Positions 602 through 6,869 of a DNA stretch of 7,389 nucleotides are shown in pieces. The notes under the pieces are model-generated. The model saw nothing but the letters and a program-made list of their open reading frames with translations, had not been told where the DNA came from and made no database searches. Location: positions 27,620 through 35,008 of the forward strand of contig NZIY01000021.1 in assembly GCA_002691795.1 (NCBI GenBank), in the 5' to 3' direction. The stretch's first letter is position 1. Every line of letters begins with the position of its first letter. Both the position numbers and the translations under genes were made by a program. Origin of the DNA: SAR116 cluster bacterium (GTDB taxonomy: Bacteria; Pseudomonadota; Alphaproteobacteria; Puniceispirillales; Marisalimonadaceae).

Positions 602-1552
602 TTAAGCAACATTAATATTTGTTAAAATATTATTCTGCATTGGAAAATATGGTTGAAATGAATTAGATTCTTCAATCTTAAAATTATCTTTATTTTTAAA
701 AATTTTCTTTAGTAATTTGTTATTTAATTCGTGGCCTGGTTCTGATGCATGAAATTTACCTATAATTGGTAGCCCACACATGTAGAAGTCACCAACGCAA
801 TCTAAGACCTTATGTTTAACAAATTCTTGTTTACATCTCAATCCTGAAGAATTTAAAAGCTTATTTTCATCTACAACAATAGCATTATTAAGATTTCCTC
901 CAAGCCCATAACCATAAGCTCTGAGTTTAGTAACATCTTTTGACATACAAAATGTCCTCGCGTAGCAAATTTCATTTAAAAAGTTGTGCTTGTTATGAGT
1001 ATAACAATACTTATCTTTCCCTATCAAAGTGTTGGGATAATTTATTTTCACTGTAAATGAAAGTGATGCTGATGGGTCAACTTTTATAAATCGTTCACCT
1101 AATTTTACACTAATTGTTTTTTGTATTTTAACTATCTTTTTAGGTATTTTTTGTATTTTTATACCTATTTCGTTTATTTTATTTGTAAATTCATTTGAAC
1201 TTCCATCCATTGCAGGTAATTCTGAAGAATTGATCTCGATTAATAAATTATTTATATCAAGCGCATGAAGGGTTGCCAGGAGATGTTCTATAGTAGATAC
1301 AAACACACCTTTATTGTTCTTTAATTTCGAACAAAATCTTGAATCTTCAATATTATTCACATCAACTTTGATTAAGTTATCTTTTTCTAAGTCAACTCTT
1401 TTGAATATTATACCAAAATTTTCTTGAGCAGGTATTAACTTCATATTTACAGCTTTGCCAGAATGAATGCCAACACCATTGAAATAAATTACGGAATTTA
1501 TTGTTTTTTGGTTAACATCAATGTTAAGTATATCTGAATTAAGTATGTTCAT
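602..1552 (-). CDS. lpxC: UDP-3-O-acyl-N-acetylglucosamine deacetylase LpxC
   Basis: LpxC removes the acetyl group from UDP-3-O-acyl-GlcNAc, the committed step of lipid A synthesis, in the cytoplasm. The 316-residue protein has the family's usual length (about 300) and both of its repeated domains. Known active-site residues are visible: Glu89-His90 in TIEHLLATLHAL (equivalent to E. coli E78/H79), MDGSS at 115-119, His247 and Asp251 in KHKVLDCVGDF (the other zinc ligands), and His274 in FHASEPGHELN (catalytic His265 in E. coli). The glycine-rich YGLGGNLNNAIVVD lies at 215-228. The only ATG near the N-terminus is at 1552. It gives about 10-14 more residues than E. coli LpxC before the conserved GVGIHSGK (26-33). 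No convincing Shine-Dalgarno sequence precedes it. It follows ftsA directly after a 90-base gap where ftsZ would normally be. Its presence implies the cell makes lipid A. Confidence 0.97.
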   Translation of the reverse strand: MNILNSDILNIDVNQKTINSVIYFNGVGIHSGKAVNMKLIPAQENFGIIFKRVDLEKDNLIKVDVNNIEDSRFCSKLKNNKGVFVSTIEHLLATLHALDINNLLIEINSSELPAMDGSSNEFTNKINEIGIKIQKIPKKIVKIQKTISVKLGERFIKVDPSASLSFTVKINYPNTLIGKDKYCYTHNKHNFLNEICYARTFCMSKDVTKLRAYGYGLGGNLNNAIVVDENKLLNSSGLRCKQEFVKHKVLDCVGDFYMCGLPIIGKFHASEPGHELNNKLLKKIFKNKDNFKIEESNSFQPYFPMQNNILTNINVA

Positions 1553-1566
1553 AATTATAGGATTAT

Positions 1567-1595
1567 AATATATGGGCTGAAATTCTATATATCAA
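1567..1595 (-). promoter_or_regulatory. Possible sigma-70-type promoter for lpxC-bamD
   Basis: On the minus strand TTGATA (1595-1590) is followed after 17 bases by TATATT (1572-1567). Each box is one mismatch from the TTGACA/TATAAT consensus, and the spacing is ideal. Transcription would start near 1560, only about 8 bases before the lpxC ATG, so the mRNA would be almost leaderless. That would fit the lack of a Shine-Dalgarno sequence there. An overlapping TATAAT at 1567-1562 lacks a good -35 box. In DNA this AT-rich such matches arise easily, so this is tentative. Confidence 0.35.
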
Positions 1596-1606
1596 ATCAA
1601 ATATAG
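1585..1606 (-). repeat. Inverted repeat in the ftsA-lpxC gap
   Basis: CTATAT and ATATAG are perfect 6-base inverted arms separated by 10 bases, which hold a tandem ATCAA/ATCAA on the plus strand. The element overlaps the putative -35 box of lpxC, as an operator would. No T-run follows on the minus strand, so it does not look like a terminator for ftsA. The arms are pure AT apart from the end base pair, and chance is a serious alternative. Confidence 0.25.
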
Positions 1607-1642
1607 TTACTAAATGTTTCACTTTTTATTAAATTAGTATGG

Positions 1643-2860
1643 TTATCCTAAAAACATTTTTTTAAGTTTATAAATAAACGAAAATAAACTTTGATTTTCG
1701 CTCTCCCTTGAACTTTTCAATACTAAACCAACTAAGCAACTAAAGCTTGGTGATTGAAGAAGATCAGGTGCATTTAAAAGACCAATAGGCTTGCCAATTC
1801 TAACATCACATTTGAAATAATTTTTAGCAATATTACTAATTCCATGTAGATTTGATGTTCCACCTGTTATTATAATTTTTGAAATTTTTGAATAATCGGG
1901 AAATGATTGGTTTAATTTATTTACAATTAACTCAAATATTTCTTCTACTCGAGGCTTTATTATTGCAGTTAACATTGATTTAGGAAAATCATGGGATGTT
2001 ATTTCACCTTTTTCAGTTATTATTTTAACATCAATTTTTTTAAAAGCATCAACTTGATCATTATCAACTGACCCATGTAATATTTTAAGTTTTTCCGCCT
2101 CTTCTGCTTCTGTACCTAAACCCTTAACAAGATCACTAGTTATATGGATTCCACCTACTTTTATTATGTTAGAGAAGACCAAATTATCTTTTAAATATAC
2201 GCCAATAGATGTTAAGCTTGCTCCTATATCTATAATTATAGCTCCATGATGCCGTTCTTCTCTAATCATAGTTGAAATTCCTGTTAATTCTGGAGTTATA
2301 TAAAACTTATCTATGTTTAAATGACATAGCTCTACAGTTTTATTTATATTTGTTAAAACATCTCTATCAACAAAAGTATTAATTGCGTCAAGAGTTAAAC
2401 TTTTACTTTTAAGTCCAACTGGGTTGTCAACTTCAAAATCATGATCAATTTTAAATGCTTTAGGTGTTCGACTGAGTGGGACATATTGTTGGTATTTATC
2501 TTTATATTTGTCATCATTCAATAATTTTAAAATATCATGTTTTTTTATAAATTCATTATCAATTTGTAGATTATTAGTTGTGATTTCAGAAAACGGTGAA
2601 CCTCCACTTATGTTACAGTTAAGATTTGAAACCCTGAAACCAGCCATTTCTTCAGCTTTTTCTACAGCTTTGGATATGGCATGAGACAATTTAACTAAAT
2701 CTGTAACTTTTCCTCTATTCAAGCCCATCGAAATATGCTGTCCGAAACCTAGAACTTTTATTTGAATATTATTATTATCTACTGATTGTCCAATCAAACA
2801 TGCAATTTTACTATTACCAATATCTAAACCAACGTGAATTTTATGACTATTTTTTTTAAT
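1643..2860 (-). CDS. ftsA: Cell division protein FtsA, with probable ATT start
   Basis: FtsA is an actin-like ATPase that tethers FtsZ filaments to the inner membrane and recruits later divisome proteins. With the ATT start it has 405 residues, a normal length. Visible actin-fold motifs are phosphate-1 (HVGLDIGNSKIACLIG, 9-24), phosphate-2 (IIIDIGASLTSIGVYL, 208-223) and the adenosine motif (IIITGGTSNLHGI, 329-341). The FtsA-specific 1C region lies around 105-190. Residues 391-405 (SLFSFIYKLKKMFLG) form the C-terminal amphipathic membrane-targeting helix. The first standard start codon in frame is a TTG at 2797, but it falls after phosphate-1 and would remove the first beta strand and part of the ATP site. 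The frame upstream contains no ATG, GTG or TTG before a stop at 2873-2875. ATT at 2860-2858 sits correctly behind a strong GAGGTGAT, so I place the start there. The start is inferred; the family assignment is secure. ftsZ does not follow. Confidence 0.93.
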   Translation of the reverse strand: MKKNSHKIHVGLDIGNSKIACLIGQSVDNNNIQIKVLGFGQHISMGLNRGKVTDLVKLSHAISKAVEKAEEMAGFRVSNLNCNISGGSPFSEITTNNLQIDNEFIKKHDILKLLNDDKYKDKYQQYVPLSRTPKAFKIDHDFEVDNPVGLKSKSLTLDAINTFVDRDVLTNINKTVELCHLNIDKFYITPELTGISTMIREERHHGAIIIDIGASLTSIGVYLKDNLVFSNIIKVGGIHITSDLVKGLGTEAEEAEKLKILHGSVDNDQVDAFKKIDVKIITEKGEITSHDFPKSMLTAIIKPRVEEIFELIVNKLNQSFPDYSKISKIIITGGTSNLHGISNIAKNYFKCDVRIGKPIGLLNAPDLLQSPSFSCLVGLVLKSSRESENQSLFSFIYKLKKMFLG

Positions 2861-2871
2861 TGAATCACCTC
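2858..2871 (-). promoter_or_regulatory. ftsA Shine-Dalgarno sequence and ATT start codon
   Basis: GAGGTGAT (2871-2864) gives eight contiguous bases complementary to the usual 3' end of 16S rRNA, the best such match in the window. Seven bases separate its GAGG core from ATT at 2860-2858, which is optimal spacing. An in-frame stop lies at 2873-2875. AUU is a known rare start codon in bacteria (infC and pcnB of E. coli), and in infC it makes translation sensitive to IF3. The next codons are A-rich (AAA AAA AAT), which favours initiation. Confidence 0.7.
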
Positions 2872-2888
2872 TTTAAAAATATTTAAAG
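2871..2888 (-). promoter_or_regulatory. Hairpin filling the ftsQ-ftsA spacer
   Basis: CTTTAAA and TTTAAAG form a perfect 7-bp stem around a 4-base loop. It starts two bases after the ftsQ stop codon, and its last base is the first base of the ftsA Shine-Dalgarno sequence. In the mRNA it would be melted by ribosomes finishing ftsQ, so it could couple ftsA translation to ftsQ. The stem has a single G-C pair and is weak. As DNA it is also a near-palindrome. The role is inferred. Confidence 0.45.
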
Positions 2889-2889
2889 T

Positions 2890-3681
2890 CTAATTAATTT
2901 TTGGTTTAAGAAAATATTTTCCATTAATTCTTAAATCAATTTCAACAAAATTACCGTTCAGAAGATTATTCTCTGTGTCAACTTTTTTTAAAAGCACTAG
3001 AGTTTCTAATACTTTCATTTCAGGTAATAGAATCTTTACTCCATTCTCTAGATTAATATTCCACCTTCTTTCATTTACAAAAGAAAATGAGTTAAAATTT
3101 AAATTAATTTCACTTTCACTTATTAATCTTAATATAAGATTTGCATTTTTGTTAGAATTTTTTCCTAAAAAAGTTGGTATATGAAATAAATTTGGAGTTA
3201 ATTTAAATGGAATTAAATTATTTTTTCTATCTATCAAAAAATCTTTACTTTTTATACTGGTAAATCCAATAATATGTTTTTCTTCTATTTTAATTAAAAT
3301 TATATTTTTTGAAGATCTCTTTATAATAAATTTCTTAATTAATTGATTTTGTTTTAATACATCTGATATTATGTGAAGATCATTATTAATTTTTGAATTT
3401 CCTAAATTTTTGTTTATGCTTAGGAGTAATTTATTAATGTTCACATATTGATTTCCTTCAATTAATATCTTCGGGATTGATTTTTTGTCATCTGAAGCCA
3501 ATAAAAAAGTCTTTACATTTAAAAAATGGTTTATGAACATTTCCTTTTTTACTGCTAGGATAGAAAAAATTAAAATAACTAAAATTAGAAAAATAATTTT
3601 AAAAAATGTAAGCTTTATTTGATTTGATAATTTTATAATATTGTAAATTATATTAAACCTTCTCAAATTTTGCTTTTTCAA
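2890..3681 (-). CDS. ftsQ: Cell division protein FtsQ (start uncertain)
   Basis: FtsQ is a bitopic inner-membrane protein that links early and late divisome proteins through its periplasmic part. From the TTG at 3681 it has 263 residues, a usual size. It has a short basic cytoplasmic N-terminus, one membrane segment (about 25-44, FFKIIFLILVILIFSILAV), and a POTRA domain of about 70-137 (starting IPKILIEGNQYV). The beta domain follows, with ERRWNINLENGVKILLP at 204-220 and VEIDLRINGKYFLKP near the end, both typical of alphaproteobacterial FtsQ. It lies between ddl and ftsA, as expected. No ATG exists before the membrane segment. Candidate starts are TTG at 3681 (29-base overlap with ddl, no Shine-Dalgarno sequence), TTG at 3666, or ATA/ATT at 3651/3648 behind GAGAAGG. 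All keep the membrane segment. The protein is rich in Lys, Asn and Ile, as the AT bias predicts. Confidence 0.92.
   Translation of the reverse strand: MKKQNLRRFNIIYNIIKLSNQIKLTFFKIIFLILVILIFSILAVKKEMFINHFLNVKTFLLASDDKKSIPKILIEGNQYVNINKLLLSINKNLGNSKINNDLHIISDVLKQNQLIKKFIIKRSSKNIILIKIEEKHIIGFTSIKSKDFLIDRKNNLIPFKLTPNLFHIPTFLGKNSNKNANLILRLISESEINLNFNSFSFVNERRWNINLENGVKILLPEMKVLETLVLLKKVDTENNLLNGNFVEIDLRINGKYFLKPKIN
3646..3664 (-). promoter_or_regulatory. Possible ftsQ ribosome-binding site with ATA/ATT start
   Basis: GAGAAGG (3664-3658), inside the last codons of ddl, is the best Shine-Dalgarno-like sequence near the ftsQ N-terminus. The two in-frame codons at suitable distance are ATA (3651-3649, 6 bases away) and ATT (3648-3646, 9 bases away), just past the ddl stop at 3655-3653. 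Either would give an FtsQ about 10-11 residues shorter, with the membrane segment intact. The GAGAAGG could instead be simply Glu-Lys coding sequence of ddl. Confidence 0.35.
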
Positions 3682-4576: not shown

Positions 4577-5445
4577 TTTTCACCAATTATTTTTATTTCC
4601 CAATTAAGTTTTCTTCCTGTTTTTTTAAAAACTTTATCTCTAACTAATTCTCCTAAATTTTCTATATCAGTTGCGCTTGCGTAATTTTCATTAATTATAA
4701 AATTACAATGTTTTTCAGATATAACTGCTCCACCAACTTTCAATCCTCTACACCCAGCATTATCAATAAGTTCCCAAGCCTTGAAATCTTTTCCATTCAT
4801 GAATGTACTTCCACCTGTTTTTAATCCAGTTGGTTGACTGTCCTTTCTAGATTTTATAATTTCTTTCATTTTATCTTGAATACGATTGATAGAACCTTTA
4901 TTTGATCTGAAATTTGCTTTTAAAAACATCCACTCCTGACTAAGACTATTAGATCTATAATTTAGACCTAATTCTTCAACCGTGAATGTTTTTAAAATTC
5001 CCTTTTTATTTACAGCTATAACATTAATTAAAAAGTTTTTTATTTCAGACCCGTAAGCGCCAGAATTCATTCTAATTCCACCGCCAATTGTTCCTGGTAT
5101 CCCAATTAAAAACTCTAATCCACTTCTTGCATTATTTCTTGCAAATCTTGCGACTTCTGCGTCCATAGCACCACAATAAGATGTAATTGTTCCTTTATTA
5201 TCAATTGAAATTTTATTTAATTTATTAAAATGAATTATAATGCCATTATATCCTTTATCTCTAATAACTATGTTGGATCCTGCGCCTAAAGGATAGATGT
5301 TCAAATTAGATTTATTTTTTTTTAAAAATGATATTAAATCTTCTTCAGTTTCTGGTTGAAAATAAATTTTAGATGTTCCGCCAACTCCGAACCAAGTTAA
5401 TCTATTTAATTTTTTATTTTTGACTATATTATTTTTTTCAATCAT
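4573..5445 (-). CDS. murB: UDP-N-acetylenolpyruvoylglucosamine reductase MurB
   Basis: MurB reduces UDP-GlcNAc-enolpyruvate to UDP-MurNAc with NADPH and FAD, in the cytoplasm. The 290-residue protein shows the FAD-binding LGAGSNIVIRD (53-63) and GIPGTIGGGIRMNSGAYG (115-132), with TWFGVGGTSKIY near the start (17-28). NYRSN (162-166) carries the substrate-binding Tyr-Arg. GGSTFMN (211-217) provides Ser213, the proton donor that corresponds to E. coli Ser229, and Glu283 in NWEIKIIG is the final catalytic acid. It resembles the shorter type II MurB common outside enterobacteria. I chose the ATG at 5445, five bases after the murC stop. A TTG at 5457 would add four residues (LLNK) and overlap murC by 7 bases. 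Neither has a good Shine-Dalgarno sequence, so coupling to murC is likely. Its TGA stop overlaps the ddl ATG. Confidence 0.96.
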   Translation of the reverse strand: MIEKNNIVKNKKLNRLTWFGVGGTSKIYFQPETEEDLISFLKKNKSNLNIYPLGAGSNIVIRDKGYNGIIIHFNKLNKISIDNKGTITSYCGAMDAEVARFARNNARSGLEFLIGIPGTIGGGIRMNSGAYGSEIKNFLINVIAVNKKGILKTFTVEELGLNYRSNSLSQEWMFLKANFRSNKGSINRIQDKMKEIIKSRKDSQPTGLKTGGSTFMNGKDFKAWELIDNAGCRGLKVGGAVISEKHCNFIINENYASATDIENLGELVRDKVFKKTGRKLNWEIKIIGEK

Positions 5446-5450
5446 CTTGT

Positions 5451-6869
5451 TTAACAATTTTCTAAATTTTTTAATTCTTGTTTTAAATTATTTGCAATTT
5501 TTGTTATATTCCCAGCACCTAAAAAAATTATAATTTCATACTTATCTATTTTGTTGAATATAAATTTATAAATATCATCATCCTTTTTAAGAAAATTTAC
5601 ATTTTTATGCCCATAATTTCTAATGCCATTTTCTAGATTAATACTCTCAAAATTGTTCATTTTTTTTTCACCTGCTGGATATACATTAAGTAAAACAACT
5701 TCGTCTGCATCATTAAAACATGAGCAAAATTCGTTAAAATGATTTTTTAATCTAGAATATCTGTGTGGTTGAAATATAGCTAAAACTTTACTATTTCGTT
5801 TTAACAATTTTGTTGCACTTAATGCTGCTTTTATTTCTTCGGGATGATGTCCGTAATCATCAATTATTTTTGATTTTTTATAGGTATCAATTAGTTGAAA
5901 ACGTCTTTGTACACCGTTAAAATTTTTAAGAGCAGTCTTAATAATTTTAATATCAATGTTTAATTGTAAAGCTACAGATATTGAAGCTAAAGCATTTTGA
6001 ATATTATGTAATCCTAACATTGAAAATGCAATATTTTTGATTGTCATCATTTTGTCATTACTTTTGTTTTTATAAGTGACATCAAAGTACATTTTTTCAT
6101 CTTTAGTAATTATATTAGTTCCTCTTACATCGGCATTCGGTGATAATCCATAACTGATAATTTTTCTATTCTTTAAATTTGAAAAAATTTTTTGAACTCT
6201 TGGGTGATCTATACATACTGAACATAATCCATAAAATGGTATTGAGGACATAAAATTTATAAAAGCATTCTCAAGATTTTTTTCTGTTTTATGAAAGTCA
6301 AGATGCTCTAAATCTATGTTTGTGATAATTGCTATAGTTGGCATTAGTTTAGAAAAGCTTCCATCACTTTCATCAGCCTCTACAACCATCCATTCTCCTT
6401 GACCTAATTTTGCATTGCTAGCTAATGAAGAAATAATTCCTCCATTAATTATGGTTGGATCCATTTTATTTGTATCAAGAATTTTTGAAACTAAAGAGGT
6501 AGTTGTAGTTTTTCCGTGAGTGCCTGCAATTGCAATAGATTTTTTAAGTTTCATTAATTCCCCAAGCATTTCAGATCTATGAATTATAGGTATAAATAAT
6601 TTTTTTGCTTCAATCAGTTCAGGATTATTTTGTTTAATTGCTGAAGAAAATATAACTATACTAGCGTTTTGGATTTGTTTTTTATCATGACCAATAGAAA
6701 TTTTAGCCCCTAAAGAAATCAAACGACTTACTATTTTAGAAGAGGATAGGTCACTTCCTTGGACTTGATATCCAGATTTAAGTAAAATTTCAGCTATTCC
6801 ACTCATCCCAATGCCACCAATTCCGATAAAATGAAAAAAACCAAAGTTTTTAGGAATGTTAATTATCAT
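5451..6869 (-). CDS. murC: UDP-N-acetylmuramate--L-alanine ligase MurC
   Basis: MurC adds L-alanine to UDP-MurNAc with ATP, the first amino acid of the stem peptide. At 472 residues it is of normal length. The N-terminal Rossmann-like domain has FIGIGGIGMSGIAEIL (14-29), binding the UDP part. The central domain has the P-loop AGTHGKTTTTS (115-125), VEADESDGSF (163-172) and TNIDLEHLDFH (183-193). The C-terminal domain has DDYGHHPEEIKAAL (337-350), FQPHRYSR (366-373), the segment NVYPAGE (395-401) and GAGNI (451-455). All known Mur ligase signatures are intact, and GHHP plus HRYSR distinguish MurC from MurD, MurE and MurF. The ATG overlaps the murG stop as ATGA (6866-6869). GGAG eight bases upstream (6881-6878) is a good Shine-Dalgarno sequence, so it can be translated both by coupling and independently. 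Confidence 0.98.
   Translation of the reverse strand: MIINIPKNFGFFHFIGIGGIGMSGIAEILLKSGYQVQGSDLSSSKIVSRLISLGAKISIGHDKKQIQNASIVIFSSAIKQNNPELIEAKKLFIPIIHRSEMLGELMKLKKSIAIAGTHGKTTTTSLVSKILDTNKMDPTIINGGIISSLASNAKLGQGEWMVVEADESDGSFSKLMPTIAIITNIDLEHLDFHKTEKNLENAFINFMSSIPFYGLCSVCIDHPRVQKIFSNLKNRKIISYGLSPNADVRGTNIITKDEKMYFDVTYKNKSNDKMMTIKNIAFSMLGLHNIQNALASISVALQLNIDIKIIKTALKNFNGVQRRFQLIDTYKKSKIIDDYGHHPEEIKAALSATKLLKRNSKVLAIFQPHRYSRLKNHFNEFCSCFNDADEVVLLNVYPAGEKKMNNFESINLENGIRNYGHKNVNFLKKDDDIYKFIFNKIDKYEIIIFLGAGNITKIANNLKQELKNLENC

What the first reader, a model, noticed from the sequence alone, without database searches (positions are those of the whole stretch)
2858..2871. FtsA appears to start at an ATT codon behind the strongest Shine-Dalgarno sequence in the window
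The essential phosphate-1 segment HVGLDIGNSKIACLIG is encoded in frame upstream of every ATG, GTG or TTG. The only initiation site that fits is ATT at 2860-2858, seven bases after the GAGG of a GAGGTGAT. AUU starts are very rare; the classic case, infC, is controlled by IF3. A weak start codon paired with a perfect Shine-Dalgarno sequence could hold FtsA at low, initiation-factor-sensitive levels. Automatic annotation would probably pick the internal TTG at 2797 and lose 21 residues.
Basis: partly seen in the sequence, partly recalled or inferred. Interest (0 to 1): 0.7.

Follow-up and report, generated by a model that had tools for sequence, protein, structure and literature searches.

The report
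Marine ftsA likely starts at AUU
In one genus of marine SAR116 bacteria the cell-division gene ftsA has no ATG, GTG or TTG ahead of its conserved beginning in any of the nine genomes where it was found, so its translation likely starts at a conserved ATT codon, which would keep the FtsA protein scarce, and four other genes there likely use similar unusual starts.

Summary
In the window, ftsA (1643-2860, minus strand) has no ATG/GTG/TTG between its in-frame stop (2873-2875) and the phosphate-1 segment. ATT (2858-2860) lies 7 nt after the GAGG of GAGGTGAT, a Shine-Dalgarno (SD) pairing stronger than in any of 464 background genes. It is not an error: all 9 ftsA copies found in the 13 held genomes of this SAR116 genus lack a standard start and keep AGG-N7-ATT, and the 14 codons just before the internal TTG change only synonymously. 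Of the 60 best protein clusters (65% identity or more), 57 are truncated; the truncated/ATT rows form one supported clade. Sister genera have ATG or TTG.

A two-genome survey (510 ortholog pairs) found four more conserved near-cognate starts: infC (ATA), lptB (CTG), an M23 peptidase (CTG) and a QuiC-like gene (ATT). For lptB and M23 the same site is GTG or TTG in some relatives. AUU initiation of ftsA is therefore very likely. Its proposed purpose, low IF3-sensitive FtsA dosage, is inference; lineage-wide tolerance of weak starts is the main rival. The very strong SD is special to the window species; relatives keep only the AGGT core.

The parts
2858..2860 (-). ATT, predicted start codon of ftsA
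   Evidence: No standard start upstream of the conserved N-terminus; ATT in 9 of 9 genus copies
2864..2871 (-). Shine-Dalgarno GAGGTGAT; core AGGT kept in 9 of 9 genus copies
   Evidence: Duplex energy -13.3 kcal/mol, none of 464 background genes as strong; core invariant
2873..2875 (-). In-frame TAA that closes the ftsA frame upstream
   Evidence: Sequence
1643..2860 (-). ftsA coding sequence read from ATT (405 codons plus stop)
   Evidence: TIGR01174 ftsA 269.6 bits, cut-off 175.85; Pfam PF14450; translation
2798..2839 (-). Codons 8-21, IHVGLDIGNSKIAC, conserved segment with phosphate-1 loop upstream of the internal TTG
   Evidence: Amino acids identical in 9 of 9, synonymous changes at 8 of 14 codons
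2795..2797 (-). Internal TTG (codon 22) chosen by automatic annotation; TTA in one of 9 genomes
   Evidence: P0002 begins here; codon table; no SD
2890..3681 (-). ftsQ, the gene upstream; its stop (2892-2890) begins 32 nt before ATT, 13-14 nt in the 8 relatives
   Evidence: Pfam FtsQ_DivIB_C and POTRA_1; distances
602..1552 (-). lpxC, the gene downstream of ftsA (ftsZ is not here)
   Evidence: Pfam LpxC; neighbour check

Best explanation
Translation of ftsA in this SAR116 genus likely starts at the conserved AUU codon, which the AGG 7 nt upstream is predicted to place in the ribosomal P site for ordinary initiator tRNA. Shown: no standard start codon precedes the conserved N-terminus in 9 of 9 copies, ATT and the AGG spacing are invariant, and the segment upstream of the internal TTG is under protein-level constraint. 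Inferred: the first residue is formyl-methionine; the mismatch at the third codon position makes initiation slow and sensitive to IF3, partly offset by the SD (strongly so in the window species). Inferred: a low FtsA dosage is what selection keeps, since excess FtsA over FtsZ blocks division (recalled from E. coli). The same logic probably applies to infC, lptB, the M23 peptidase and the QuiC-like gene.
For: 9 of 9 genus copies without ATG/GTG/TTG before GLDIG, all with ATT at the same place. A-10 G-9 G-8 T-7 and A-1 invariant; codons 8-21 change only synonymously, codons 2-7 all vary in amino acid. 57 of the 60 best protein clusters truncated at the internal TTG position or a later ATG; the ATT/truncated rows are one clade, support 100/99. 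The N-terminus so read aligns with residue 2 of FtsA 7q6d and adds profile positions 3-20 of TIGR01174, 18 bits. Near-cognate codons upstream of the standard starts carry an SD at 6 of 29 conserved positions against 4 of 179 for other codons. infC uses ATA with an SD in 49 of 49 loci looked at in the order, so near-cognate initiation is expected to work here. Precedent: conserved AUU and AUA starts with extended SDs in S. aureus, about 10% of AUG output in poor medium (PMC13009471, passages).
Against: No protein or ribosome data. The ATT codon being invariant is modest evidence alone: 5 of 30 other conserved Ile columns are all ATT. The relatives' SD is ordinary in 3 of 8 (35% of background genes are as strong or stronger), so a strong SD is not a general partner of the weak codon. 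Nothing tests low dosage or IF3 dependence, and genes of quite different function share such starts, which fits mere tolerance as well.
Confidence: 0.74

Rival explanations
1. AUU is the start, but only because this lineage tolerates weak start codons; it is drift without a regulatory role.
For: Five genes of different function have conserved near-cognate starts in about half a genome; lptB has CTG in 10 of 13 loci of other genera, with TTG in 2 and GTG in 1 at the same site, so the codons are exchanged.
Against: ATT is one base from ATG yet held in all 9 copies, and no full-length form appears in the 57 truncated clusters; substitution to AUU is very rare elsewhere: 1 of 61,358 AUG and 1 of 5,080 GUG ancestral starts (PMC5622118, passages).
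Confidence: 0.3
2. Ribosomes that finish ftsQ reinitiate at the AUU, so FtsA output is tied to FtsQ by termination-reinitiation.
For: The ftsQ stop begins 13-14 nt before ATT in 8 genomes; the QuiC-like ATT overlaps the upstream stop and the M23 CTG lies 6 nt from one.
Against: In the window the distance is 32 nt, and coupling was almost abolished at about 20 nt in E. coli and Haloferax (PMC10666635, abstract). An upstream frame ending within -35..+5 is common: 205 of 464 background genes. infC is at -53 or -54.
Confidence: 0.2
3. FtsA starts at the internal TTG and lacks the first strand and phosphate-1 loop.
For: Automatic annotation places it there; TTG in 8 of 9 copies.
Against: No SD (+0.6); TTA in one genome; the 14 codons before it change only synonymously; profile positions 3-20 would be lost.
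Confidence: 0.02
4. Sequencing or assembly error, or a decayed gene.
For: The genome is incomplete (85%, 82 contigs) and some of its other contigs carry N bases.
Against: The same pattern in 8 other genomes, seven of them full copies 71-73% identical in protein to the window's, frames open without stops.
Confidence: 0.01

Closest known systems
infC of E. coli (AUU start, autocontrol by IF3) and pcnB (AUU)
   Same: A near-cognate AUU start behind an SD; known to lower expression (passage in PMC1780047)
   Different: Here the gene is ftsA, of the divisome; IF3 dependence not tested. The infC of this order has ATA
cvfC1 (AUU) and ccpN (AUA) of Staphylococcus aureus, PMC13009471
   Same: Non-canonical start and SD conserved among relatives, found by comparison and ribosome data (passages)
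   Different: There shown by profiling and reporters; other genes and another phylum; the long SD is conserved there, only its core here
Bacillus licheniformis lepA with inferred AUU start, PMC1780047
   Same: Full length restored only if AUU is taken as the start (passage)
   Different: One inferred case as quoted there; here a whole clade with a fixed site

Membership tests
FtsA | Match to the curated FtsA model over its cut-off | tested here: met
   TIGR01174 269.6 bits against 175.85; PF14450 116.8 against 31.8
FtsA | N-terminal strand and phosphate-1 loop present | tested here: met
   Present only if read from ATT; aligns with 7q6d from residue 2
FtsA | Place in the division cluster after ftsQ | tested here: met
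   ftsQ upstream; ftsZ is displaced
Genes with near-cognate (AUU type) start | No AUG/GUG/UUG in frame before the conserved N-terminus | tested here: met
   9 of 9 genus copies
Genes with near-cognate (AUU type) start | Start codon and SD spacing conserved among relatives | tested here: met
   AGG-N7-ATT in 9 of 9
Genes with near-cognate (AUU type) start | Initiation at that codon shown by peptide, profiling or reporter | not testable with these tools
   No such data at hand
IF3-controlled genes (infC type) | Output depends on IF3, and no longer does after change to AUG | not testable with these tools
   Only indirect: infC itself has ATA with an SD in 49 of 49 loci looked at
Termination-reinitiation pairs | Upstream stop overlapping or within a few nt of the start | tested here: not met
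   ftsQ stop begins 13-14 nt before ATT in 8 genomes and 32 nt before it in the window

The most novel reading that the evidence does not exclude
FtsA, LptB, an M23 peptidoglycan peptidase and a QuiC-like enzyme form, with infC itself, a start-codon regulon: their near-cognate starts tie cell division and envelope growth in these marine bacteria directly to IF3 level and ribosome supply, without any dedicated regulator.
Probability: 0.2. Interest if true: 0.82.

Novelty: new variant of a known kind. Interest (0 to 1): 0.62.

Why it matters
A divisome gene with a clade-wide AUU start was not found described in the held papers by the searches made. It would be a simple way to set the dose of a protein whose excess blocks division (recalled). 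It also shows that gene calling limited to ATG/GTG/TTG truncates FtsA throughout a marine clade (57 of the 60 best clusters), and that comparing start sites between near relatives can reveal a set of such genes: five in about half of one genome, including CUG starts exchanged with GUG or UUG at the same site.

Tried and rejected
Sequencing error or pseudogene: rejected by 8 further genomes with open frames.

Start at the GTG inside the SD: it is in another frame, and in the relatives with AGGTGAAATAA that frame stops two codons on (sequence). FtsQ-FtsA fusion by frameshift: the distance from the ftsQ stop differs between window and relatives, and a fusion to the C-terminus of FtsQ would put FtsA outside the cytoplasm (recalled topology).

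A changed initiator tRNA as special cause: the gene in G000 has A29-U41 in place of the first of the three anticodon-stem G-C pairs (L287; numbering recalled), but so do all 25 matching genomes of 58 in the family and all rows printed for the 64 matching genomes of 115 in the class. It is class-wide background and does not single out this genus.

RNA structure at the start: the window folds no better than shuffles (z -0.14); four relatives have z 0.93 to 1.71, that is little structure. Nothing specific.

A viral-contig scan for ftsA relatives confirmed none. The first ortholog scan listed many antisense frames; overlapping frames were removed (510 of 586 pairs kept). I classed the rows by eye, dropping those internal to a gene (for example KdsA, or later codons of infC); one search repeats the count by rule. 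Searches (wrong motif; script error) gave no result and were redone. Paper searches gave background only.

Full report
What the window is. The 7.4 kb window is a division and cell-wall cluster on the minus strand: murG (partial), murC, murB, ddl, ftsQ, ftsA, lpxC and a bamD-like lipoprotein gene (murG, murC and murB named by reading the translations). It lies in a 2.04 Mb genome of 82 contigs, 85% complete. Relatives in named records are SAR116 cluster Alphaproteobacteria: isolates AG-920-B04, AG-919-I04, AG-919-I05, AG-895-J18, AG-891-N20, AH-326-A17 and AH-287-A08, and MED-G100 (the titles say MAG, the AG-/AH- names are, from recall, those of single-cell genomes).

The observation. The ftsA frame opens after TAA at 2875-2873 and holds no ATG, GTG or TTG before TTG 2797-2795, although HVGLDIGNSKIAC is encoded before it. 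ATT at 2860-2858 sits 7 nt after the GAGG of GAGGTGAT. The duplex energy, -13.3 kcal/mol, is the best of 9 candidate starts tested in the window, and none of 464 background genes of the same genome is as strong. FtsA structures and profile begin where this reading begins: the Ile encoded by ATT aligns to residue 2 of chain 7q6d, and TIGR01174 gains profile positions 3-20 and 18 bits over the TTG-started form.

Is it conserved? Of 13 genomes held for the genus, 9 have an ftsA match, one of them a fragment at a contig end; the other 4 (G046, G049, G050, G052), all incomplete, gave none. All 9 lack a standard start upstream, and all 9 have ATT ten codons before the Gly of GLDIG. The window is 71-73% identical in protein to the seven other full copies. 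Aligned at ATT, A-10 G-9 G-8 T-7 and A-1 are invariant (so are A-12 and nothing else from -16 on). Codons 2-7 all vary in amino acid; codons 8-21 never do, though 8 of the 14 show synonymous changes. The TTG at codon 22 is TTA in one genome. Invariance of the ATT codon alone is modest evidence: 5 of 30 other conserved Ile columns are also all ATT.

How wide is it? Among predicted proteins (120 listed of 1562), the 60 best clusters (P0002-P0061, lowest identity 65%) are 40 that start at the position of the internal TTG (383-388 aa), 17 that start at a later Met (361-363 aa) and 3 full-length ones (P0042, P0043, P0047). In a tree of 88 rows the 65 truncated or ATT rows are one clade with 100/99 support, in 100% of 200 bootstrap trees, and the 3 full-length clusters are its sister. 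Sister genera have standard starts: TTG (L012) and ATG (L013) in g2, ATG in all 29 loci of g3 and g4 examined. One change to AUU at the base of the clade fits. The DNA of the three sister clusters and of most truncated clusters was not seen.

Is ftsA alone? I compared open frames of about half of the window genome with 1.12 Mb of G047: 586 reciprocal best pairs, 510 after removing overlapping frames. At positions where both genomes have the same codon upstream of any standard start, near-cognate codons (ATT, ATA, CTG) carried an SD in both genomes at 6 of 29 positions, against 4 of 179 for all other codons (sums mine; Fisher p 0.0006; positions within a gene are not independent). The 6 are five start sites plus one internal infC codon; the 4 are internal to infC or M23. 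The five are infC (ATA), ftsA (ATT), a QuiC-like gene (ATT), lptB (CTG) and an M23 peptidase (CTG). Names come from profile matches; the QuiC match is far below its curated cut-off (495 against 1200 bits).

These hold up in more genomes. infC: ATA with an SD in 49 of 49 loci looked at (of 53 genomes with a match, 61 searched), 11 of them in the genus; 13 of the 49 also have a standard codon somewhere in frame before the conserved motif. QuiC-like: ATT in 4 of 4 genus genomes that have the gene, of 13. M23: CTG in 10 of 10 genus loci; in the 20 loci of other genera that were cut out, of 33 matches, the site is GTG in 19 and TTG in 1. lptB: CTG in the 9 genus loci where the motif was found, and in the tenth (G052) on re-reading; in 13 loci of other genera, of 33 matches, CTG 10, TTG 2, GTG 1. 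Four of those 10 CTG loci also have a standard codon upstream in frame, in L294 an ATG directly before the CTG. The exchange of CTG with GTG or TTG at one site is the best sign that these are true start codons.

How it likely works. Inferred: the SD holds the AUU in the P site, initiator tRNA (CAU) pairs with two of three bases, and IF3 makes such complexes unstable, so the rate is low. The window species offsets this with a near-perfect SD, the relatives less (-8.5 in 5, -4.0 in 3). In S. aureus, conserved AUU and AUA starts with extended SDs gave about 10% of the AUG output in poor medium, and infC starts with AUA there too (PMC13009471, passages). Substitution to AUU is very rare: 1 of 61,358 ancestral AUG and 1 of 5,080 ancestral GUG starts (PMC5622118, passages). 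Low FtsA makes sense because excess FtsA over FtsZ blocks division (recalled). In g1 and g2 ftsA is followed by lpxC, with ftsZ about 14 kb upstream in the window genome, whereas in the 20 g3/g4 loci read ftsZ follows ftsA (FtsZ recognised by its N-terminal sequence). Separate control of FtsA may thus have become useful, but g2 has the same order with standard starts. Termination-reinitiation after ftsQ may help where its stop begins 13-14 nt away (8 genomes), hardly in the window (32 nt), given how fast it fails with distance (PMC10666635, abstract).

What is not shown. There are no peptide, ribosome or reporter data; low dosage, the IF3 link and a shared regulon are inference. A lineage-wide tolerance of weak starts explains much of the pattern as economically. 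The A29-U41 pair of the initiator tRNA is class-wide. A change at the neighbouring pair 30-40 was reported to weaken discrimination against CUG (PMC11497404, passages), so it could be a permissive background, but it does not single out this genus.

Literature. Searches for ftsA with non-canonical start codon, SAR116 with start codon, ftsA with start codon and AUU, CUG start codon with lptB and non-AUG initiation in alphaproteobacteria listed no paper that by its title or abstract describes these starts. Only open-licence papers are held.

Noticed in passing
L222-L227, L229-L231, L301 (genus); L290-L300, L302, L303 (other genera): lptB, the LPS-export ATPase, has a CTG start after an SD in the genus; elsewhere in the family CTG 10, TTG 2, GTG 1 of 13 loci.
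   Followed up: partly
L237-L246 (genus); L252-L271 (other genera): An M23 peptidase gene has CTG in 10 of 10 genus loci, and GTG (19) or TTG (1) at the same site in 20 loci of other genera.
   Followed up: partly
L218-L221: A QuiC-like gene (sugar-isomerase plus HPPD-like parts) has an ATT start that overlaps the stop of the upstream gene, 4 of 4. The copy in L220 was reported with one in-frame TGA in its match.
   Followed up: partly
L082-L092 and order-wide infC loci: infC starts with ATA after an SD in 49 of 49 loci looked at, in place of the AUU of E. coli (recalled).
   Followed up: yes
window 602-1643; G000:C30:44215-44499: ftsZ does not follow ftsA in g1 or g2: lpxC does, and ftsZ lies about 14 kb upstream in the window genome; in the 20 g3/g4 loci read ftsZ follows ftsA.
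   Followed up: partly
L287 (G000:C38:35440-35560): The initiator tRNA has A29-U41 instead of the first of the three anticodon-stem G-C pairs; so do all rows printed for the class.
   Followed up: yes
window 5445-5457: murB may start at TTG 5457 or ATG 5445; neither has an SD (-0.3 and -0.1 kcal/mol).
   Followed up: no
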